From Pseudarthrobacter defluvii (GTDB lineage: Bacteria; Actinomycetota; Actinomycetes; Actinomycetales; Micrococcaceae): DNA of 64,000 nt. The notes below the pieces were generated by a model. It was given only the letters and a program-made list of their open reading frames with translations, was not told where the DNA came from and did no database searches. The stretch is taken from positions 1,984,001 through 2,048,000 of the forward strand of contig NZ_CP066362.1 of NCBI RefSeq assembly GCF_030323865.1, read 5' to 3'. A program made the position numbers and the translations under genes. The first letter of the stretch is position 1. Every line of letters begins with the position of its first letter. Shown in pieces: positions 28,552-37,293 of the stretch.

Positions 28552-29958
28552 GTGCCATTCCTGAACAAGATCCAGCGCTGGGCTGATCACCGGCCGCACG
28601 AGACCGCCGTCGTGGTTGGCGGGCGCCGGCTTGACTGGGCAGGGCTGTGCGATGCGGCCGCCGGGCTGGTGGCCGGGACGAAGTCGGTGACCACGCTCCG
28701 CGAAGCCAATTCCGTGGATTTTGCCGTGAGGTTCGCCGCTGCTGTGGCCGGCAACCGGCAGTGCGCGGTCCTCGATCCGGACTGGCCCGCGCCCCTGCAG
28801 GAGGACATCGTCAGGCATGTGGAGGCGAACAGTATTGCGGCGCCGGTGTCCCCGGACGAGGACCTCGTGGATGGACCGCCGGAGTCCACCTTCCTGATCG
28901 GCCTCACTTCCGGGACCACGTCGGTACCCAAGGCCTTCACCCGCTCCCGCCAGTCCTGGCAGCAGTCTTTCGATGCCTCGATTGAGTTCTTCGGCCTTCG
29001 CCAGGATGACGTCACCCTTGCCCCGGGGCCGCTGGCCGCCAGCCTCAATCTCTACGCCCTGGCTGAATGCCTCTACGCCGGTTCCGAGTTCCAGACGCTG
29101 GAGACGTTCGACGTCGGCGACGTCCACGCCGCCATCACGCACGACCGCGTCACCCGGCTGGTCCTGGTGCCCACCATGCTGCGGATGCTCAGCGAACGCG
29201 GCATGACGGGTTGCGTGGATGCGTCGGGGATCCGCAGCATCATCTGCGCCGGCTCGAAGCTGGATGCCCGCACACTGGAAGCGGCCCGGCGCTGGGCCCC
29301 GAACGCCACCATCTACGAGTATTACGGCGCCTCCGAACTGAGCTTCGTTTCCGGCCTGGGACTGGCACCCGGCCAGGCTGCGGCCCCCGGTGGAACCGGA
29401 ATCGGGCGTCCCTTTCCCGGCGTCGAAGTCCGGATCATGGACGACTCCGGCACCCAGGTCCCGGACGGCGGCTACGGCAACATCTGCGTCAGCAGCGGCA
29501 TGGTCAGCAACGGCTACCTGTGGGGCGATGACGGCCAGGCTCTGCGGTCCTTCGGCAACTGGTACACGGTGGGGGACCAGGGCTATCTCGAGGACGGGGA
29601 ACTGCACATCCTCGGCCGGCGCGCCGACATGATCCTTACCGCCGGCCGGAACGTGTACCCCCACGAGGTGGAGTTGGCTCTGGCCGCAGTCCCCGGTGTG
29701 GCGGCTGCCCTCGCCGCCGGAATGCCGGACGATCTGCGCGGCCAGCGGGTGGTGGCCGGCGTGGTTGCGTCCCACGGCGGGATCACGGCAACCCAGCTCA
29801 GGGCTGGCCTGGAAGACCTCTTGTCCCGGCACAAGCGTCCCCTGCAGTACTACCTCCTGCCGGAACTGCCCACCACGGACCGCGGCAAGGTCAGCCGGAG
29901 CCTGCTGCTGGAGTGGATCAGTTCCCGGGATCCAAGGGCGCGGCTCCTTGCCGGCTGA
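28552..29958 (+). CDS. AMP-dependent acyl-CoA ligase (YhfT-like)
   Basis: This 468-residue adenylate-forming enzyme is shorter than standard fatty acyl-CoA synthetases. The phosphate-binding loop is GLTSGTTSVPKAF, a slightly altered form of the usual SGTTGxPKG. YEYYGASEL, YTVGDQGYLEDGELHILGR and the C-terminal TDRGKVSR (catalytic lysine) complete the family pattern. The following thiolase gene overlaps it, and the convergent biotin-uptake genes end 1.2 kb away. In Bacillus subtilis a similar ligase (yhfT) and thiolase (yhfS) sit with a bioY gene, so a role in biotin precursor or acyl salvage is plausible but unproven. GTG start at 28552. Confidence 0.82.
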   Translation: MPFLNKIQRWADHRPHETAVVVGGRRLDWAGLCDAAAGLVAGTKSVTTLREANSVDFAVRFAAAVAGNRQCAVLDPDWPAPLQEDIVRHVEANSIAAPVSPDEDLVDGPPESTFLIGLTSGTTSVPKAFTRSRQSWQQSFDASIEFFGLRQDDVTLAPGPLAASLNLYALAECLYAGSEFQTLETFDVGDVHAAITHDRVTRLVLVPTMLRMLSERGMTGCVDASGIRSIICAGSKLDARTLEAARRWAPNATIYEYYGASELSFVSGLGLAPGQAAAPGGTGIGRPFPGVEVRIMDDSGTQVPDGGYGNICVSSGMVSNGYLWGDDGQALRSFGNWYTVGDQGYLEDGELHILGRRADMILTAGRNVYPHEVELALAAVPGVAAALAAGMPDDLRGQRVVAGVVASHGGITATQLRAGLEDLLSRHKRPLQYYLLPELPTTDRGKVSRSLLLEWISSRDPRARLLAG

Positions 29959-31126
29959 CCTGTTGCCGCCGGAACGCCAGCCCGTCATCATCGCCGCGCG
30001 CCGGACCCCGGTGTGCCCCGTCAACGGCGCATTGCGGAGCCTGCGCGCCCATGAACTTTTGGCACCCGTCCTGCGGGAGCTGGTCTCGGAGGTTGCACTC
30101 GATCCCGCCTCCGTCTCCGACGTTGTCATCGGCAACGCAGTAGGCGGCGGCGGCAACGTGGCCCGGCTGGCCCTGCTCGAGGCCGGACTCCCAGTTAGTG
30201 TCCCCGGGATCACCGTCGACCGACAGTGCGGTTCCGGGCTGGACGCCATTGTCCTCGCCGGCCGGCTGGTTGCAGCAGGCGGCAACCCGCTTTACCTGGC
30301 CGGGGGAGTGGAGAGCACTAGCACCGCACCCCTGCGGGCCCACAGGACGGACGACGGCGGCGCGGACTTCTACCGGCGCGCCCAGTTTGTGCCGGAAAGC
30401 TTCGGCGATCCGGACATGGGCGTTGCGGCGGAGACGGTGGCGCAGGAATACGGCATCGGCAGGGAGCGGCAGGATGACTTCGCGCTGGCCAGCCACCGGA
30501 AAGCCCTGGCGGCAATCAGGGACGGACGCTTTGCCGGCGAAATCGTCCCGCTGGCCACGGCCGCAGGCATGATCTCCTGTGACAGTGGCCCCCGGCGCGG
30601 CCTCACCCCGGCCGTCATGCGACGGTTCCCGCCCGCCTTCGTGCCAGGAGGAACTGTCACCGCCGGGAACTCCTGCTTTGACGCGGATGGTGCCTCCGCC
30701 GTCGCTATCACGTCCCTGGAGTGTGCCCGCCAACTTGGGGCACGCGACGCGCTGTTGGTGCGCGGAACCGCAACCGCCGGCGTCGAGCCCAGGGTGCTGG
30801 GGATCGGTGCTGTGCGGGCCGCCGGTGGGCTACTCGCGGAGGCCGGTGTGACCGCAGAACACGTGGACCTGGTGGAGTTCAATGAGGCCTTTGCGTCCCA
30901 GACCCTCGCGTGCCTGGACCAGCTGGGAATCGAGCCGGACCGGGCCAACCTCGATGGCGGGGCGCTGGCGCTGGGGCACGCCTATGGTGCCTCGGGGGCG
31001 GTGCTGGTGACCCGGTTGCTCGCGCAGGCGCGGAGGGCAGGGACGTCGAAAGCCTTGGCGCTGGCCATGATCAGCATGGCGGGCGGAATGGGGACGGCCG
31101 CACTGCTGGAGTACCGGCGCCTCTAG
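29948..31126 (+). CDS. Thiolase-family protein with altered second active site (YhfS-like)
   Basis: This is a thiolase-superfamily protein of about 392 residues. The start is uncertain: TTG at 29948, preceded by AAGGG, overlaps the ligase gene by 11 bases; no ATG or GTG lies near the conserved N-terminus. The acyl-accepting cysteine is present in DRQCGSGLDA (codon 30227-30229) and the NEAFA motif is intact. Two features differ from textbook thiolases: GHAYGASG replaces GHPxGASG, and ISMAGGMG replaces the CxGxG motif, so the second catalytic cysteine is serine (codon 31073-31075). The enzyme may catalyse a modified or one-way reaction. It forms an operon with the ligase. Confidence 0.82.
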   Translation: MPADLLPPERQPVIIAARRTPVCPVNGALRSLRAHELLAPVLRELVSEVALDPASVSDVVIGNAVGGGGNVARLALLEAGLPVSVPGITVDRQCGSGLDAIVLAGRLVAAGGNPLYLAGGVESTSTAPLRAHRTDDGGADFYRRAQFVPESFGDPDMGVAAETVAQEYGIGRERQDDFALASHRKALAAIRDGRFAGEIVPLATAAGMISCDSGPRRGLTPAVMRRFPPAFVPGGTVTAGNSCFDADGASAVAITSLECARQLGARDALLVRGTATAGVEPRVLGIGAVRAAGGLLAEAGVTAEHVDLVEFNEAFASQTLACLDQLGIEPDRANLDGGALALGHAYGASGAVLVTRLLAQARRAGTSKALALAMISMAGGMGTAALLEYRRL

Positions 31127-31133
31127 GCCGGCT

Positions 31134-31757
31134 CTAGTCCTCGGCTTCGCCCAGGCCACGGGCCGCGAGCGCTTCACCCGTTTGGCGTGCGTATGCCACC
31201 GAGGTGATGAGGACGGGCAGGACCAGGGCCCGCGGATTGCGCTCCAGGCCGCGGGCCTTGGCGGAGTCACGGACGTCGGCGAAGGTGCCGGCGATGAACG
31301 GGATGCTGCGGAGCATGATGCCGATGGTCAGGGCAAAGCGCTCCGGATCCGCGCCGAACCTGGTAAAGGGACGGGCAGCCCGGACCACGCCGTCGAGGAG
31401 CCGCTGAATCGGCGTGGTGGCGGTGAGCAGGGACGCGGCCACCACGCAGAGCAGGATGTTCAACACGATCCGCCCCGCCGTGGGGCCGCCGAGTTGCCAC
31501 CACTGGAAGAGACCAATCACCAACAGCACGGGGGCAAGCGGCCGGATGGCGCGCCAGAGCCTTTTCACTCCGGCTCCGGAAGCCAAAAAGAGAACGCACA
31601 GCGCAGCCAGTACCGCTGCGGAGATGCGCCAGTCCACAATGATGAAGGAAACCAGGCCGCAGGCTACGACCAGGAGGAACTTCAGTGCCAGCGGTGCCCG
31701 GTGCAGAAGCGAATCGCCGGGCACATAGTTGGCAAGGAGGAAGCCGTGGCCCCTCAC
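31134..31757 (-). CDS. ecfT: Energy-coupling factor transporter transmembrane protein EcfT (BioN)
   Basis: EcfT is the membrane coupling subunit of an ECF vitamin importer. The GTG at 31757 overlaps the ecfA stop codon (GTGA) and gives 207 residues. There are about five hydrophobic segments. The coupling motifs that contact the ATPase are SAKARGLERN and the C-terminal ALAARGLGE, both of the A-R-G type. A longer ORF from 31793 starts inside ecfA and is rejected. Last gene of bioY-ecfA-ecfT. Confidence 0.9.
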   Translation of the reverse strand: MRGHGFLLANYVPGDSLLHRAPLALKFLLVVACGLVSFIIVDWRISAAVLAALCVLFLASGAGVKRLWRAIRPLAPVLLVIGLFQWWQLGGPTAGRIVLNILLCVVAASLLTATTPIQRLLDGVVRAARPFTRFGADPERFALTIGIMLRSIPFIAGTFADVRDSAKARGLERNPRALVLPVLITSVAYARQTGEALAARGLGEAED

Positions 31758-32482
31758 GGAACATCCCGCGCCGTGTTGAGCCCCTGCATGCACCAGGAAC
31801 GGTAGGCAGTCACTGCTTCTGCAGGGGCGCCGTCGAAGGCTACGCGTCCGTCTGCGATCACCAGGACCCGGTCCATGTCCAGGGCCAGTTCGAGGTCGTG
31901 CGTGGACAGGATGACCTGCTGGTCCAGGCCCGCCAGCGTCCTGCGGAGCAGTTCGCGGTTGCGCAGGTCCAGGAGGGTGGAGGGCTCGTCCAGGACCAGC
32001 ACTTTAGGGTCGACGGCCAGTACGGCGGCGAGCGCCATGAGCTGCCGTTCGCCGCCGGACAGTTCGTAGATGCTCTGGTCCGCCAGGTGCAGCAGGCCCA
32101 GTCTTTGCAGTGCGGCTTCGGCCTGGCTGCGCCGCTCGGCCGCGTTCCGGACAGATCGACGCAGGGACAGTTCCACGTCCTCGCGGCCTGTGGGCATCAC
32201 CAGCTGGGACAGCGGATCGGTGAAGACGAACCCCACGTTGCGCCGGACTTTCCGGACGGCGCGGACTGTGTCGTCGCCGTCGACCGTTACTGTCCCTGTG
32301 GTGGGCTGGATGAGTCCGTTGACCAGGCGCAGCAGGGTGGATTTCCCGGAACCGTTGGCACCGATGATGCCGATGCGTGCTTCCTCCAGCCGGAGGTCGA
32401 CCGGGTGAAGGAGCACTTTGGGGTGCGGGGTGTCCTCCCGTTCGACGGCGACGGACGCCTGGGCGAAGGCCACGGCGGGCAT
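31754..32482 (-). CDS. ecfA: Energy-coupling factor transporter ATPase EcfA (BioM)
   Basis: This 242-residue ATPase powers the biotin ECF importer. Walker A is GANGSGKSTL, the signature is LSGGERQL and Walker B is VLVLDEPSTLLD. Only one ATPase is encoded, so it probably acts as a homodimer, as known for BioMNY. It begins six bases after the bioY stop and overlaps ecfT by four bases. Confidence 0.92.
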   Translation of the reverse strand: MPAVAFAQASVAVEREDTPHPKVLLHPVDLRLEEARIGIIGANGSGKSTLLRLVNGLIQPTTGTVTVDGDDTVRAVRKVRRNVGFVFTDPLSQLVMPTGREDVELSLRRSVRNAAERRSQAEAALQRLGLLHLADQSIYELSGGERQLMALAAVLAVDPKVLVLDEPSTLLDLRNRELLRRTLAGLDQQVILSTHDLELALDMDRVLVIADGRVAFDGAPAEAVTAYRSWCMQGLNTARDVP

Positions 32483-32488
32483 GGCGGC

Positions 32489-33127
32489 CTAGGCGCTCTC
32501 GGCGGGCAGGGCACGGCGCCGGACGCGGCGCACCAGGACGTCCGGGAAGGCCCGGTGAAGGGCGACGGCGATGGCAGCTGCCAGGACGTTCTTGACGATG
32601 TCGCCGGGGTAGAAGACGAGGTCGCTCATGAAGGCCTGCTCCAGGGTGGCCTTGGAGTTCATCGCAATTCCGATGATCCCCAGCGTGTGCACGAAGACGA
32701 TGCTCGTGGCTGTCGCGGCAAGGAAGAACCAGAGGGCGCGGGCCTTGGTGGTGCGCCGGATCACCAGGGTGGCCAGCCATCCCACGACAAATGCGGCGAT
32801 GGGGAAGGCGATGATGTAGCCGGCAGACGGCCCGGCGAGGATGGCCAGGCCGCTGCGGCCCTGGCTGAAAATGGGCAGGCCGGCCAGGCCAAGGAGCGTG
32901 TAAAGCCCGACGGCGGCGAACCCGCGGGCGGGGCCAAGCACCAGTCCGGTGAGCATCACCGCCAGGGTCTGGAAGGTGATGGGGACGCCGAAACCGTTCA
33001 GGGCCAGGCCCGGCACCAAGGCTGCGGCTGCGACCAGGGCGGCGAAGACGGCGATCAGCCCGAGGTCAGTGCCGTTCCAGCGGTGGCGGTCCGTTGTGGG
33101 AGTGGTCTTGGTTGTGGTGCTGCTCAT
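32489..33127 (-). CDS. bioY: Biotin transporter BioY
   Basis: BioY is the substrate-binding S-component of the biotin importer. The product has 212 residues with six hydrophobic segments. Family motifs include VPITFQTLAVMLTGLVLGPARG, GLPIFSQGRSGLAILAGPSAGYI and the C-terminal PGDIVKN. The ATG at 33127 follows AGGA; an upstream TTG at 33151 lies inside a candidate operator and is rejected. No biotin synthesis genes are visible in the window. Confidence 0.93.
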   Translation of the reverse strand: MSSTTTKTTPTTDRHRWNGTDLGLIAVFAALVAAAALVPGLALNGFGVPITFQTLAVMLTGLVLGPARGFAAVGLYTLLGLAGLPIFSQGRSGLAILAGPSAGYIIAFPIAAFVVGWLATLVIRRTTKARALWFFLAATATSIVFVHTLGIIGIAMNSKATLEQAFMSDLVFYPGDIVKNVLAAAIAVALHRAFPDVLVRRVRRRALPAESA

Positions 33128-33144
33128 GGCGGTCCTGTCGGGGT

Positions 33145-33168
33145 TGTACAAGCGGAATCTAATGTACA
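33145..33168 (-). promoter_or_regulatory. Candidate operator upstream of bioY
   Basis: Two copies of the palindromic hexamer TGTACA (33145-33150 and 33163-33168), separated by 12 bases, lie 18-41 bases upstream of the bioY ATG and overlap a possible -10. The spacing does not fit the classical BirA operator. It could be a site for another biotin-responsive regulator, but this is a guess. Confidence 0.35.
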
Positions 33169-33303: not shown

Positions 33304-35712
33304 TTAGATGCTTGCCGCCTGACGGTCTGCGGAGATCCTCGTGAGGAAGTCCTCGACGACGGCCGCGAACTCGTCAGGCCGTTCGATCTGCGGCATGTGT
33401 CCGGTCTTGGCGAAGACGTGGGACTCGGCGCGGGGCAGCGCCGCGGCGGCCGCTTCAAGGTGGCTGAACGGCAGGATGTGGTCGTGGTCGCCCCACACCA
33501 CCAGCGCCGGAACGTCGGACTTGGCCAGCGAGCCGATCAGAGCGGTGCGCCACTCGGCCCGGACACCGGAAATCGTTCCTAGGTCGCGGGCGACGTCGAC
33601 CAGCGTCCGGCGGTGCGCCTCCCGCTGCGACAGGGCGAGCGCGTGGCCGATGCGGTCGTCCGTGACCAGCGTTTTGTCGTAGAAGAGCGACTGTACCGTC
33701 CGGCGTGATGCTTTCTCGTCGGGCCGCAGGAGCAGGGCCGCGAGCGGGCGGACCGCAAGGAGGCGAAGGACCAGTGCCACTTCCTGGCCGAATCCGGCGC
33801 TGTTGGCCAGCACGAGCGCGGAGACGCGGTCCGGATGGTCGGCGGCCAGCTTCATGGCCACGGCACCGCCGAGCGAGTTGCCCATCACGGGCAGCGGCCC
33901 GGTAACCCCGACGGCGTCCAGGAAGGCCGGCAGGATCCCGGCCAGCTTTGCGAGCGTGGTCGTGCCGGGGAGCCGTTCGGAGTACGCGAAGCCTGGCAGG
34001 TCGACGCTGTAGACCGTGTGGCGGTCCGAGAGCCGATCGTGCTGTTCGTTCCAGTCCTCGAGGCTCTGGCCGATGCCGTGCAGCAGCAGGACCGGATCCC
34101 CGCTGCCGGTCTTCCGGAAGCGCAGCCGTGACCCCGCGACGGTGACATGGCCCGTCCCCGGCAGCGCGAGGGGATCCCGGGCCGGGGTCGCGGGTTGCCG
34201 GGCGGTTTTCCGCACCGGCTGCCCGCGCCGGCCGAGGCGGACGTGGTCGGTCAGTCTGCCGGCCCGGAGCAGGGCGAAGTCGCGGAAGTAGTTCTGGTGC
34301 AGCCGCCATGGCGAGGCGGCGCCCTGCCGGGGCAACTGGTCGGCGCCACGGAAAATGTAGCCGGCCTTCAGGTCGATCAGCTTTGACAGCGTGCCGTTGG
34401 CGACGTCGGCGGGTGCCACGGGTACCACCCACTGGAGGTTCCGGCGGTCGAGCTGCTTGATCAGCCTGCAGATGTAGCCGGCGACCAGGTCCGCCTTCAG
34501 GGTCCAGGACGCGTTGGTGTAGCCGATGGTGAGGGCGAAGTTCGGGACCCCCTCCAGCATCATGCCCTTGTAGGTGAGGGTCTTGCCGACGTCCACGGAC
34601 TCGCCGTCGACGGAGAGCTTCATGCCGCCGATCACCAGCAGGTTCAGTCCCGTGGCCGTGACAATGACGTCGGCGGGCAGCGACGTGCCGGAGGCCAGGT
34701 CAATCCCGTCCGGGGTGATCCGGGAAATCGTGTCGGTCACGATTTCGGCAGTGCCGACACTGATGGCCCGGTACAGGTCTCCGTTGGGGATCGCGCAGAC
34801 CCGCTGGTCCCACGGCTGGTACGACGGGGCCAGATGCGTGTCCACCGGGAAGCCCGCCGGCAGTTTGGCTACTGCCGACTTGCGCAGGATCGCCTTCATC
34901 GTCTCGGGCCGCCGTCGGCTGAGCTGGTAGGTGAACATGGAGAAAAGAATGTTCTTGGAACGTACGACGTCGTACGCCAGTTGCGCGGGCAGCTTGCCCC
35001 GGAGGCGGTCGGCCAGGTGGTCCCGCGCGGGCACGGGGGCGATGTAGGTGGGGGAGCGCTGCAGCATCGTTACCTTGGCCGCCGACTTTGCCATGGACGG
35101 CACCAGCGTCACGGCCGTGGCGCCGCTGCCGATGACCACCACCTGCTTTCCCTCATAGTCGAGGTCGGCCGGCCAGTGCTGCGGGTGGACGATCGTTCCG
35201 GCAAAGGTATCGGCCCCGTCGATGGCCGGGGTGAAGCCCTCGTCATAGCGGTAGTAGCCGGAACAGACGGACAGGAACGAGCAGGTGAAGGTGAGTGGCT
35301 CGGGGGAGGAGGCGGTGTCGCCGGACCGGAACTCGCCCCCGGACGTGTGAACCGCCGTCACGGTCCACAGTGCGGTTTCGCTTGACCATGAGGCGGAAAT
35401 GACCCTGGTGTTCAGCCGGATCCGCGGCGCCAGGCCCTCGTCGGCGACCGTTGCCTCGATGTACTCGCGGATGGACTCGCCGTCCGCGATCGCCTTGGCG
35501 CCGGCCCAGGGCCGGAAGGAGTAGCCGAGCGTGTACATGTCGCTGTCGGACCGGATCCCGGGGTACCGGAACAGGTCCCAGGTACCCCCGACGGCGTTCC
35601 TCGACTCCAGTACGGTGAAGGTTTTTCCGGGTACCTCGCGCTTCAGCCGGCTGGCGAAACCCACACCGCTCAGCCCGGCGCCGACAATCAACACATCTAC
35701 GTGCTCGCTCAT
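33304..35712 (-). CDS. EthA-like Baeyer-Villiger monooxygenase fused to alpha/beta hydrolase
   Basis: This 802-residue bifunctional protein has two parts. Residues about 1-490 are a flavin monooxygenase: FAD loop GAGLSG (11-16), FRYPGIRSDSDMYTLGY, the type I Baeyer-Villiger fingerprint FAGTIVHPQHWP (170-181) and NADPH loop GSGATA (195-200). It closely resembles mycobacterial EthA. After a short basic linker, residues about 515-800 are an alpha/beta hydrolase with HGIGQS, nucleophile S613 in GNSLGG, acid in GDHDH (D742/D744) and H772 in TGHMPQ. The first half would convert a ketone to an ester, which the second half could hydrolyse. It is divergent from an EthR-like gene 69 bases away. Natural substrate unknown. 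Confidence 0.9.
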   Translation of the reverse strand: MSEHVDVLIVGAGLSGVGFASRLKREVPGKTFTVLESRNAVGGTWDLFRYPGIRSDSDMYTLGYSFRPWAGAKAIADGESIREYIEATVADEGLAPRIRLNTRVISASWSSETALWTVTAVHTSGGEFRSGDTASSPEPLTFTCSFLSVCSGYYRYDEGFTPAIDGADTFAGTIVHPQHWPADLDYEGKQVVVIGSGATAVTLVPSMAKSAAKVTMLQRSPTYIAPVPARDHLADRLRGKLPAQLAYDVVRSKNILFSMFTYQLSRRRPETMKAILRKSAVAKLPAGFPVDTHLAPSYQPWDQRVCAIPNGDLYRAISVGTAEIVTDTISRITPDGIDLASGTSLPADVIVTATGLNLLVIGGMKLSVDGESVDVGKTLTYKGMMLEGVPNFALTIGYTNASWTLKADLVAGYICRLIKQLDRRNLQWVVPVAPADVANGTLSKLIDLKAGYIFRGADQLPRQGAASPWRLHQNYFRDFALLRAGRLTDHVRLGRRGQPVRKTARQPATPARDPLALPGTGHVTVAGSRLRFRKTGSGDPVLLLHGIGQSLEDWNEQHDRLSDRHTVYSVDLPGFAYSERLPGTTTLAKLAGILPAFLDAVGVTGPLPVMGNSLGGAVAMKLAADHPDRVSALVLANSAGFGQEVALVLRLLAVRPLAALLLRPDEKASRRTVQSLFYDKTLVTDDRIGHALALSQREAHRRTLVDVARDLGTISGVRAEWRTALIGSLAKSDVPALVVWGDHDHILPFSHLEAAAAALPRAESHVFAKTGHMPQIERPDEFAAVVEDFLTRISADRQAASI

Positions 35713-35721
35713 GCCGCCAAG

Positions 35722-35759
35722 CTATCGACTCAATGTTGAGATAGTCAACACCGTGTTGA
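35722..35759. promoter_or_regulatory. Palindromic operator between monooxygenase and ethR-like gene
   Basis: The 69-base divergent gap contains two adjoining inverted repeats. CTATC (35722-35726) pairs with GATAG (35740-35744) around a TCAA/TTGA pair (35730-35739), and TCAACAC (35745-35751) pairs perfectly with GTGTTGA (35753-35759). Repeated palindromic half-sites in this position match the arrangement of the mycobacterial ethA-ethR operator, which EthR covers as several dimers. It is the likely autoregulatory site. Confidence 0.75.
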
Positions 35760-35781: not shown

Positions 35782-36414
35782 ATGGCTCAAAGAGGAAGAC
35801 GCACCGCGAGGGTTTCGGGCGATGAGCGCCAGGACGCAATCCTGGTCACCGCCGAGGCCCTCCTGGCAAACCGTGCCTTTGACGACGTCTCCATCGAGGA
35901 CCTGGCCCGGGGTGCCGGCATATCGCGCCCCACGTTCTACTTCTACTTCCCCTCGAAAGATGCCGTGCTGCTGGCCCTGCTGGACCGGGTAATCACCGAG
36001 GTCGAGCACCGGGTGGGGCACCTGCCGCGCGATTTCGAGAGCGACCCCGCGGGTGCGTGGACCCGTTCCATCGGAATGTTCGTTGAGGTGTTTGTCTCGC
36101 ACCGCGGTGTGTCGACCGCCGCCATCGGGGCGCGCGCCCGCAACGACGAGGTGCGCGGGCTGTGGTCCAGATCAATGCAGTCCTGGGTGGACTTCTCAAG
36201 CGACGTCATCCGTGCCGAGCAGGCCCGCGGGGCGGCGCCGGCGGGCATCGACGCGCACGACCTCGCGGTGAGCCTGAACCTGATGAACGAACGGGTCATT
36301 ACTGCTGTCCTCAACCGGGAGAGTCCCGCCATCGCGGAGACCGCAGCCCTGGACGTCCTGTCGACCATCTGGATCCGCAGTATTTACGGGTCCGACAATC
36401 CCGGCGGCCGCTAG
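35782..36414 (+). CDS. ethR: TetR-family repressor, EthR-like
   Basis: This 210-residue TetR-family protein resembles M. tuberculosis EthR along its length, with the HTH SIEDLARGAGISRPTFYFYFPSKDAVLLALLDRV (about residues 36-70), GAAPAGIDAHDLAVSLNLMNER and the C-terminal IWIRSIYG. EthR represses the neighbouring BVMO gene ethA and is released by hydrophobic ligands. The divergent placement beside an EthA-type gene and the palindromic gap support the same role here. A downstream dehydrogenase gene, 24 bases away, is probably in the same transcript. Confidence 0.87.
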   Translation: MAQRGRRTARVSGDERQDAILVTAEALLANRAFDDVSIEDLARGAGISRPTFYFYFPSKDAVLLALLDRVITEVEHRVGHLPRDFESDPAGAWTRSIGMFVEVFVSHRGVSTAAIGARARNDEVRGLWSRSMQSWVDFSSDVIRAEQARGAAPAGIDAHDLAVSLNLMNERVITAVLNRESPAIAETAALDVLSTIWIRSIYGSDNPGGR

Positions 36415-36438: not shown

Positions 36439-37293
36439 ATGTCCTCCATCAAGGTACTCACCGTGCTCGGCACCGGAGTGCTCGGCTCCCAGATCGCCTT
36501 CCAGGCCGCATTCCACGGTTTCGCAGTCACCGCCTACGACGTCGACGAGGACGCGCTTGCCAAGGCGCGGGACCGTTTCACCCGCCTCGCCGGGGTCTAC
36601 CGGGCACAGGTAGCCGGCGCTACCGGGGGCAAGACCGAAGCAGCCCTGGCAAACCTCCGCCTCACCGCAGACCTGGGGGACGCCGTCGTCGACGCGGACC
36701 TCGTGATCGAAGCCGTTCCCGAGCTGCTGGAACTCAAACGAGACGTCTACCGCAAGCTCGCGGAGCTGGCGCCGGCCAAAGCCATCTTCGCGACCAACTC
36801 GTCCACCCTGCTGCCCAGTGACCTGAAAGACTTCACCGGACGCCCGGACCGCTTCCTCGCGCTCCATTACGCCAACAACATCTGGGCGCAGAACATCGCC
36901 GAGGTCATGGGCACCGCGGAGACGGACCCGGCGGTGTTCGCCGCTGTTGTGGACTTTGCCCGGAACAGCGGACTGGAACCGATCGAGATCAGGAAGGAGA
37001 AGGCCGGATACGTCCTGAACTCGCTGCTGGTTCCGCTGCTGAACGCGGCCGCCGGACTGCTGCTGCAGGGCGTCGCCGACCCGCACACCATTGACAAGAC
37101 ATGGCGCATCGCCACGGGGGCCCCGACCGGACCGTTCCAGATCTACGACGTCGTCGGCCTCACCACGGCGTACAACATCGCCTCTTCCTCGCCGGATGCC
37201 GGTTCCCAGGCGTTCGCCCAGTACCTGAAGGAGCACTACATCGACCAGGGCAAGCTGGGGGTCGCCTCGGGGGAGGGCTTCTACAAGTACTGA
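36439..37293 (+). CDS. 3-hydroxyacyl-CoA dehydrogenase (3-hydroxybutyryl-CoA dehydrogenase-like)
   Basis: This 284-residue NAD-dependent dehydrogenase has the Rossmann loop GTGVLGSQIA, the VIEAVPE segment, NSSTLLPS with the conserved serine, and the catalytic-histidine block LHYANNIWAQNIAEV. KAGYVLNSLLVPLLNAA and FQIYDVVGL are C-terminal domain features. AAGGAAA precedes the ATG. Being cotranscribed with the ethR-like gene, it may act on the acid or hydroxyacid released by the monooxygenase-hydrolase fusion; that link is inference. Confidence 0.85.
   Translation: MSSIKVLTVLGTGVLGSQIAFQAAFHGFAVTAYDVDEDALAKARDRFTRLAGVYRAQVAGATGGKTEAALANLRLTADLGDAVVDADLVIEAVPELLELKRDVYRKLAELAPAKAIFATNSSTLLPSDLKDFTGRPDRFLALHYANNIWAQNIAEVMGTAETDPAVFAAVVDFARNSGLEPIEIRKEKAGYVLNSLLVPLLNAAAGLLLQGVADPHTIDKTWRIATGAPTGPFQIYDVVGLTTAYNIASSSPDAGSQAFAQYLKEHYIDQGKLGVASGEGFYKY

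What the first reader, a model, noticed from the sequence alone, without database searches (positions are those of the whole stretch)
33304..35712. EthA-type Baeyer-Villiger monooxygenase fused to an alpha/beta hydrolase
The sequence shows a complete type I BVMO fingerprint (residues 170-181) and a complete hydrolase triad (S613, D742/744, H772) in one 802-residue frame. EthA is normally about 490 residues. The fusion would make an ester and then hydrolyse it without releasing it, a ketone-to-acid-plus-alcohol module.
Basis: partly seen in the sequence, partly recalled or inferred. Interest (0 to 1): 0.78.

Follow-up and report, generated by a model that had tools for sequence, protein, structure and literature searches.

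The report
Ketone oxidiser fused to ester-cutting enzyme
A soil bacterium of the Arthrobacter group carries one protein that joins an enzyme expected to turn ketones into esters with an enzyme expected to cut esters, beside a regulator and a dehydrogenase that fit the same pathway, which hints at the unknown natural job of the well-studied EthA enzyme family.

Summary
Window 33304-35712, minus strand, is one intact 802-codon frame: an EthA-like type I Baeyer-Villiger monooxygenase (BVMO, residues ~1-490), a loose linker and an alpha/beta hydrolase (~528-790; triad S613, D744, H772). It is no sequencing join: 27 of 206 genomes of the genus carry the intact fused frame, and both domains are under purifying selection. 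Many relatives carry the two domains as neighbouring genes. Fused rows do not form one clade, and Deinococcus radiodurans has the reverse order. Best reading: a regulated secondary alcohol -> ketone -> ester -> acid + alcohol module. No activity was measured, and hydrolysis 'without releasing' the ester is unsupported. BVMO-esterase operons are known; five literature searches (listings) showed no natural fusion. New variant of a known kind, of interest because it bears on EthA's unknown native role.

The parts
33304..35712 (-). fused gene, 802 aa: EthA-like BVMO + alpha/beta hydrolase
34243..35712 (-). BVMO domain, residues 1-490
   Evidence: Pfam matches; the 50 Foldseek rows shown are all BVMOs
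35170..35205 (-). type I BVMO fingerprint, residues 170-181 (FAGTIVHPQHWP)
   Evidence: F170, G172, H176, W180, P181 invariant in 27 of 27 fused rows
34132..34242 (-). linker, residues 491-527
   Evidence: 2 of 37 columns invariant, dN/dS 0.22-0.51; residues 505-510 pLDDT under 50
33307..34131 (-). alpha/beta hydrolase domain, residues 528-802
33874..33876 (-). codon of nucleophile S613
   Evidence: invariant in 17 of 17 and 27 of 27
33481..33483 (-). codon of acid D744
   Evidence: invariant in 17 of 17 and 27 of 27
33397..33399 (-). codon of H772
   Evidence: invariant in 17 of 17 and 27 of 27
35725..35759 (-). double EthR-like operator box TCRACANNNNGTYGA-N5-TCRACANNNNGTYGA in the divergent promoter region
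   Evidence: 1 match in window, 0 in 100 shuffles; the only place in the whole genome at up to 2 mismatches; shared with ethA/ethR-type loci
35782..36414 (+). EthR-type TetR repressor, 210 aa, divergent from the fused gene
   Evidence: 8 EthR sequences at 1.7e-61 to 1.4e-60, next non-EthR 1.5e-8
36439..37293 (+). diketoreductase-like 3HCDH-family dehydrogenase, 284 aa, 24 nt after the repressor gene
   Evidence: best PDB match diketoreductase 4dyd, E 4.7e-123; Pfam 3HCDH_N and 3HCDH

Best explanation
The locus is a one-target catabolic module. An EthR-type repressor (35782-36414) is expected to sit on a double operator (35725-35759) and to shut both divergent transcripts until a small molecule releases it. 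A diketoreductase-like dehydrogenase (36439-37293) is expected to interconvert a secondary alcohol and its ketone; the BVMO half of the fused protein inserts oxygen with NADPH, FAD and O2 to give an ester (or lactone); the hydrolase half cuts it to acid plus alcohol for central metabolism. Fusion keeps the two halves at equal amounts and near each other; fixed-geometry channelling is not implied. SHOWN here: the intact frame, domain folds (model), invariant catalytic residues, purifying selection on both domains, repeated joining, operon partners, EthR homology and the conserved operator sequence. INFERRED: every reaction, the substrate class (aliphatic ketones most likely), direction of the dehydrogenase, and repression by the TetR protein.
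For: Catalytic residues kept in 27 of 27 fused rows, which are not all independent, and dN/dS 0.07-0.15 for the BVMO and 0.08-0.19 for the hydrolase in 9 of 9 pairs. In 80 named loci found with the hydrolase: 16 fused to a BVMO, 23 with a BVMO as next gene upstream (12 of these overlapping by 4 nt; gaps up to 895 nt), 28 BVMO-SDR-hydrolase, 2 with SDR and hydrolase fused beside a BVMO, 10 with no BVMO upstream, 1 not called. A dehydrogenase is the usual third partner: the 3HCDH type near 14 of 16 fused and 2 of 53 unfused BVMO-linked loci, SDR near 0 of 16 and 31 of 53, no locus with both, counting matches over 110 bits only. In the genus the 3HCDH gene (E <= 1e-70) occurs in 25 of 206 genomes, in all 25 beside this cassette. 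The operator pair occurs in 29 of 206 genomes, in 28 within about 60 nt upstream of the BVMO. Repeated joining: on the BVMO tree the label needs 3 changes for this fusion type and 2 for a second type, gains or losses; one clade of the fused hydrolases rejected, p-AU 7e-5. Precedent: acmA-acmB does ketone -> ester -> acid + alcohol (PMC6215540, passage).
Against: No activity, substrate or binding was measured. The hydrolase fold is as close to C-C bond hydrolases and epoxide hydrolases as to esterases, so ester specificity is inferred from context. Most solved members of the 3HCDH family listed are CoA-thioester enzymes. 4 of 27 intact fusions in the genus have no such dehydrogenase ortholog, 3 of these no operator either. 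10 of 80 close hydrolases have no BVMO upstream, at least two of them near a contig edge, so the hydrolase family is not tied to BVMOs alone. Weaker SDR-family genes below 110 bits lie near some fused loci (L099). The named-locus set was drawn with a query built from BVMO-linked hydrolases, so its proportions are biased.
Confidence: 0.72

Rival explanations
1. Same chemistry on a cyclic or bulky natural ketone (terpenoid, steroid-like): the BVMO makes a lactone and the hydrolase opens it.
For: Nearest solved BVMOs by sequence and fold are cyclohexanone, steroid, phenylacetone and OTEMO monooxygenases; lactone hydrolysis can use the same triad; an enol-lactonase model (pcaD) is among the below-cutoff hydrolase matches.
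Against: Those BVMOs align by sequence only over residues ~4-258, so they say little about substrate; no terpene or steroid genes were recognised beside the module (by eye only).
Confidence: 0.17
2. The hydrolase half is not an esterase: it cuts a C-C bond (for example a beta-diketone) or opens an epoxide, and the two halves act on different steps.
For: Closest folds include C-C hydrolases DxnB2, CumD, BphD, HsaD and several epoxide hydrolases; sequence matches to HsaD/BphD; the neighbour resembles a diketoreductase.
Against: The nucleophile is Ser in a GNSLGG elbow, unlike the Asp of epoxide hydrolases (recalled). A divergent hydrolase of the same Pfam family (class 2) and an Abhydrolase_3 hydrolase in D. 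radiodurans are also fused to EthA-like BVMOs, and ester cleavage is the one step that would fit all of them after a BVMO.
Confidence: 0.07
3. Detoxification or lipid remodelling rather than growth on ketones: the pair removes a toxic or signalling ketone.
For: ethA and mymA mutants are reported to affect mycolic acids and lipids (PMC9044951, PMC5403819, passages); a single operator site in the genome would also fit detoxification.
Against: A CoA ligase gene follows the fused gene in Streptomyces NBC_01717 and an AMP-ligase-like gene follows it in L071, which fits use of the acid; Arthrobacter makes no mycolic acids (recalled).
Confidence: 0.12
4. Artefact: two genes joined by a sequencing or assembly error.
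For: Separate-gene relatives exist, and one genome of the genus (G732) has the two halves in different frames.
Against: 27 of 206 genomes of the genus hold the intact fused frame; 16 of 80 named loci are fused.
Confidence: 0.01

Closest known systems
EthA / EthR of Mycobacterium
   Same: BVMO family, divergent EthR-type TetR gene, and paired TCRACANNNNGTYGA boxes in the shared promoter region
   Different: The eight EthR-linked BVMOs of one unnamed family that looks mycobacterial (L049, L050, L053, L055, L061-L064) are ~490 aa with no matching hydrolase in their 1.5 kb flanks; here a hydrolase is fused on and a dehydrogenase gene follows the repressor gene
acmA-acmB (acetone monooxygenase and esterase) of Gordonia sp. 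TY-5
   Same: BVMO and esterase in one bicistronic operon; ketone -> ester -> acid + alcohol, with secondary alcohol dehydrogenases earlier in the pathway (PMC6215540, passage)
   Different: Two separate proteins; the sequences were not compared here; control not compared
AlmA of Acinetobacter baylyi ADP1
   Same: Group B flavoprotein now read as a BVMO turning aliphatic ketones to esters (PMC12449030, passages; the original paper is not held)
   Different: Described as its own protein; an Acinetobacter relative matches our BVMO half at 44% (L179), but whether that is AlmA was not tested
Deinococcus radiodurans pMP1 833-aa protein (WP_010884002.1)
   Same: BVMO and alpha/beta hydrolase in one protein, BVMO motif and GxSxG present
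   Different: Reverse order (hydrolase first) and a different hydrolase family (Abhydrolase_3)
Diketoreductase of Acinetobacter baylyi (4dyd)
   Same: Best solved match of the neighbouring dehydrogenase, E 4.7e-123; [quoted passage not shown] passages)
   Different: Its own gene surroundings were not examined; one A. baumannii record has no close copy (best matches 27-31%)
Engineered alcohol dehydrogenase-cyclohexanone monooxygenase fusions
   Same: Neighbouring steps of the same kind of route joined (PMC5624969, abstract in search listing)
   Different: Man-made, and joins the step before the BVMO rather than the step after

Membership tests
type I Baeyer-Villiger monooxygenase | FxGxxxHxxxW(P/D) fingerprint between two nucleotide-binding motifs | tested here: met
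   Residues 170-181, with GAGLSG (11-16) before and GSGATA after it; fingerprint kept in 27 of 27
type I Baeyer-Villiger monooxygenase | BVMO fold | tested here: met
   Foldseek: the 50 rows shown are all BVMOs, best E 2.3e-30
type I Baeyer-Villiger monooxygenase | ketone to ester activity with NADPH and FAD | not testable with these tools
   needs purified protein
EthA/EthR locus | divergent EthR-type repressor | tested here: met
   EthR 1.7e-61 against 1.5e-8 for the next protein
EthA/EthR locus | operator sequence shared with mycobacterial-type ethA/ethR loci | tested here: met
   Pair found in 37 of 43 hand-listed intergenic stretches at up to 2 mismatches, the 8 mycobacterial-type ones among the 37; that this is the footprinted EthR operator was not checked against the original paper
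EthA/EthR locus | free-standing enzyme of about 490 aa | tested here: not met
   802 aa with a second catalytic domain; so 'EthA-like BVMO', not EthA
alpha/beta hydrolase | Ser-Asp-His triad and fold | tested here: met
alpha/beta hydrolase, ester-specific | ester hydrolysis | not testable with these tools
   fold neighbours include C-C hydrolases, epoxide hydrolases and esterases
BVMO-esterase ketone-degradation unit (acmAB type) | BVMO and hydrolase made together | tested here: met
   one polypeptide; adjacent or overlapping genes in relatives
BVMO-esterase ketone-degradation unit (acmAB type) | growth on ketone needs the genes | not testable with these tools
   needs a deletion strain
diketoreductase | close sequence match to 4dyd | tested here: met
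   413 bits over residues 2-284; second-best PDB match 3-hydroxybutyryl-CoA dehydrogenase 6kq9, 1.6e-84

The most novel reading that the evidence does not exclude
The EthR-EthA pair is, across Actinomycetota, the control and oxidation core of a ketone-degradation module (alcohol dehydrogenase + BVMO + ester hydrolase). The mycobacterial prodrug activator EthA would be a branch of that module that stands without its hydrolase, and EthR's natural inducer would be the ketone, the ester or a product of this route.
Probability: 0.35. Interest if true: 0.78.

Novelty: new variant of a known kind. Interest (0 to 1): 0.6.

Why it matters
Natural joining of a BVMO to an alpha/beta hydrolase, more than once and in both orders, is strong comparative evidence that the native products of this EthA-like family are esters meant to be cut. 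The physiological role of EthA is stated to be unknown (PMC5403819, passage), although it activates the drug ethionamide. A soil bacterium with the same repressor type, a matching operator and the two further enzymes makes the question testable without a pathogen. The fusion is also a one-protein biocatalyst candidate for turning ketones into acid plus alcohol.

Tried and rejected
Sequencing join or frameshift: rejected. Chance ORF on a GC-rich strand: rejected by family, fold and selection. One clade of the fused hydrolases: rejected (p-AU 7e-5; the group was tested after trees had been seen; quick trees with SH-aLRT only; changes on a tree may be gains or losses). Functional tie to the transporter-like genes downstream (31134-33151): not supported, since no such gene was labelled downstream in the stretches shown of seven fused relatives (L067-L073; L072 is cut short) or of the 16 named fused loci (some cut by contig ends). 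Diketoreductase beside the BVMO in an Acinetobacter record: not found. Fixed-geometry channelling: no support (pTM 0.67). Longest-ORF gene calling failed on these GC-rich loci and was replaced by a codon-score caller trained on the BVMO and hydrolase genes themselves (re-run). Literature: five searches (capped listings only, e.g. 25 of 1,091 and 20 of 105 papers) showed no described natural BVMO-hydrolase fusion; the library lacks most subscription journals, so this is weak evidence of absence. The original EthR operator paper was not read; operator identity rests on comparison of loci.

Rows dropped before counts: the BVMO tree used 109 of 141 rows after thinning near-copies, and shorter or weaker matches had been dropped before the 141; the hydrolase tree used 84 rows after thinning (rows before thinning not printed). 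hand-listed 43 stretches; L114 and L148, counted there as 'without EthR-type TetR', do have one, so the fair count without is 0 of 56. The six misses are Micromonospora loci with another spacing. Alignment A1 used 17 of the 42 loci with a hydrolase match, some of the 42 being copies of each other. Structure alignment A2 used 78 of 125 rows available (window, 16 fused, 52 BVMO, 56 hydrolase); L113, L136, L173 and L174 had been left out beforehand. SDR and 3HCDH neighbours were counted only over 110 bits.

Full report

NOT AN ARTEFACT. Of 206 genomes of the genus, 33 have a match at E <= 1e-50: 27 with the intact fused frame (this genome included), one fragmented (G615), one with the halves in different frames (G732), three with separate BVMO and hydrolase matches side by side (G625, G628, G719) and one with a BVMO match alone (G593) (tally by me). 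Among 27 fused rows, not all independent, 222 of 490 BVMO columns and 101 of 263 hydrolase columns are invariant, against 2 of 37 in the linker. dN/dS in nine pairs with the window is 0.07-0.15 for the BVMO, 0.08-0.19 for the hydrolase and 0.22-0.51 for the linker. Both halves are kept; the join is freer to drift.

WHERE THE FUSION COMES FROM. In a number of relatives of the same family the hydrolase is a separate gene right behind the BVMO, often with a 4-nt overlap of stop and start. The named-genome scan with the hydrolase alignment kept the best 80 loci of 563: 16 fused; 23 with the BVMO as next gene upstream, 12 of these with a 4-nt overlap and the rest with gaps from -8 to 895 nt; 28 BVMO-SDR-hydrolase; 2 in which SDR and hydrolase are fused beside a BVMO; 10 with no BVMO upstream; 1 not called. 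Fused examples are Arthrobacter, Pseudarthrobacter, Subtercola, Lacisediminihabitans, Naasia, Frondihabitans and Enteractinococcus. On the BVMO tree the window-type fusion label needs three changes, all three forced by starred branches, and a second type two, one of them forced; changes may be gains or losses. On the hydrolase tree a single clade of the fused rows is rejected (p-AU 7e-5). One fused row (L134) is sister to a free overlapping pair (L017) on both trees, which fits recent joining. The second type carries a hydrolase of the same Pfam family that matches ours at only 26-31% in six of nine loci and below the threshold in three; the four checked have the BVMO motif and a GxSxG. Streptomyces sp. 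NBC_01717 has an in-frame fusion. In D. radiodurans pMP1 an Abhydrolase_3 domain precedes the BVMO. A free-standing trio hydrolase-SDR-BVMO occurs in Deinococcus sp. QL22, and SDR, BVMO and weak hydrolase matches (26%) in a row occur in Caballeronia. Several kinds of fusion and operon thus join similar activities.

Divergent from the fused gene is a TetR protein whose eight best solved matches are all EthR (1.7e-61 to 1.4e-60), the next protein being at 1.5e-8. [quoted passage not shown] passages). At E <= 1e-70 this dehydrogenase occurs in 25 of 206 genomes of the genus, in all 25 beside the cassette, and in none of the 173 genomes without a BVMO match; 4 of the 27 intact fusions lack it (G187, G633, G745, G755). 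Among the named loci it lies near 14 of 16 fused and 2 of 53 unfused BVMO-linked ones; SDR shows the reverse, 0 of 16 and 31 of 53; no locus has both. These counts take matches over 110 bits; weaker SDR-family genes, such as two near L099, are not in them. Two unrelated dehydrogenases filling one place is what a secondary-alcohol step before the BVMO would predict.

OPERATOR. Between repressor and fused gene lies TCRACANNNNGTYGA twice, starts 20 nt apart (35725-35759). It is the only match of the pair in the window, with none in 100 shuffles, and the only place in the 4.5 Mb genome at up to 2 mismatches. In the genus 29 of 206 genomes hold it, 28 within about 60 nt upstream of the BVMO; the other, G598, is a 2-mismatch hit not beside any BVMO match. 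Five BVMO-bearing genomes lack it: G593, G625, G633, G745, G755. In a hand list of 43 EthR-type intergenic stretches, 37 hold the pair at up to 2 mismatches, including eight loci of one unnamed family that looks mycobacterial; the other six are Micromonospora loci with another spacing. None occurs in 281,736 flanking bases of the named loci checked. That those eight are true ethR loci is supported for L049, whose repressor matches EthR at 3.8e-115; the other seven were judged by their 46-54% match to the window repressor. EthR of M. tuberculosis is stated to bind the ethA-ethR intergenic region as an octamer (PMC5403819, passages); the footprint itself was not compared.

MECHANISM. Most likely: derepression by a substrate or product; secondary alcohol to ketone; ketone to ester; ester to acid plus alcohol. 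This is the route reported for acetone in Gordonia TY-5 by two separate proteins (PMC6215540, passage) and proposed for long alkanes in Thalassolituus (PMC6304351, passages); AlmA is now read as a BVMO for aliphatic ketones (PMC12449030, passages). Every catalytic and regulatory step here is inferred. The claim of hydrolysis without release is not supported.

NOVELTY AND INTEREST. BVMO-esterase operons are known, and public records already hold such fused proteins under bare hydrolase names (for example D. radiodurans). Five literature searches showed no description of a natural fusion (capped listings only). The points that look new are the repeated natural fusion, its EthR-type control with a conserved operator outside the mycobacterial-type loci, and the exchange of dehydrogenases. 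They bear on the unknown native role of EthA (PMC5403819; PMC9044951). Against over-reading: the tree does not place the mycobacterial-type EthA rows within the hydrolase-linked BVMOs with certainty and is not rooted, so loss of a hydrolase partner in mycobacteria is only a possibility.

Noticed in passing
L181:3933-6434 (Deinococcus radiodurans pMP1): 833-aa protein with the reverse order, Abhydrolase_3 first and BVMO second, annotated only as a hydrolase-fold protein.
   Followed up: partly
L075-L083: A second, apparently independent class of BVMO-hydrolase fusions (811-851 aa) with a divergent alpha/beta hydrolase; L083 is followed by an SDR gene with a 4-nt overlap.
   Followed up: partly
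L112, L018 and L159, L166: SDR and hydrolase fused to each other; Pfam shows SDR first in L018 and hydrolase first in L159, a Mycobacterium MAG. A further joining of steps of the same route.
   Followed up: partly
L176:6998-9298 (Streptomyces sp. NBC_01717 plasmid): The fused frame is open throughout but the (incomplete) gene table lists only its C-terminal hydrolase half; a dehydrogenase gene lies upstream and a CoA ligase gene downstream.
   Followed up: partly
L113 and L173: Contigs titled Vibrio cholerae 35D and Bifidobacterium breve MAG carry this actinobacterial type of BVMO module and are probably mislabelled or contaminated.
   Followed up: no
G732:C1:2170446-2172850; L016/L074; L148: Copies in which BVMO and hydrolase parts are not in one open frame although close relatives are fused; sequencing error or real splitting cannot be told apart.
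   Followed up: no
L122, L124, L144, L155, L161, L162 (Micromonospora): EthR-type repressor beside BVMO-SDR-hydrolase, with similar boxes at another spacing.
   Followed up: partly
window 28552-31126: AMP-ligase-like and thiolase-like genes overlapping by 11 nt (named by eye, no family search), convergent with transporter-like genes; possibly acid activation, but not shown to belong to the module.
   Followed up: no
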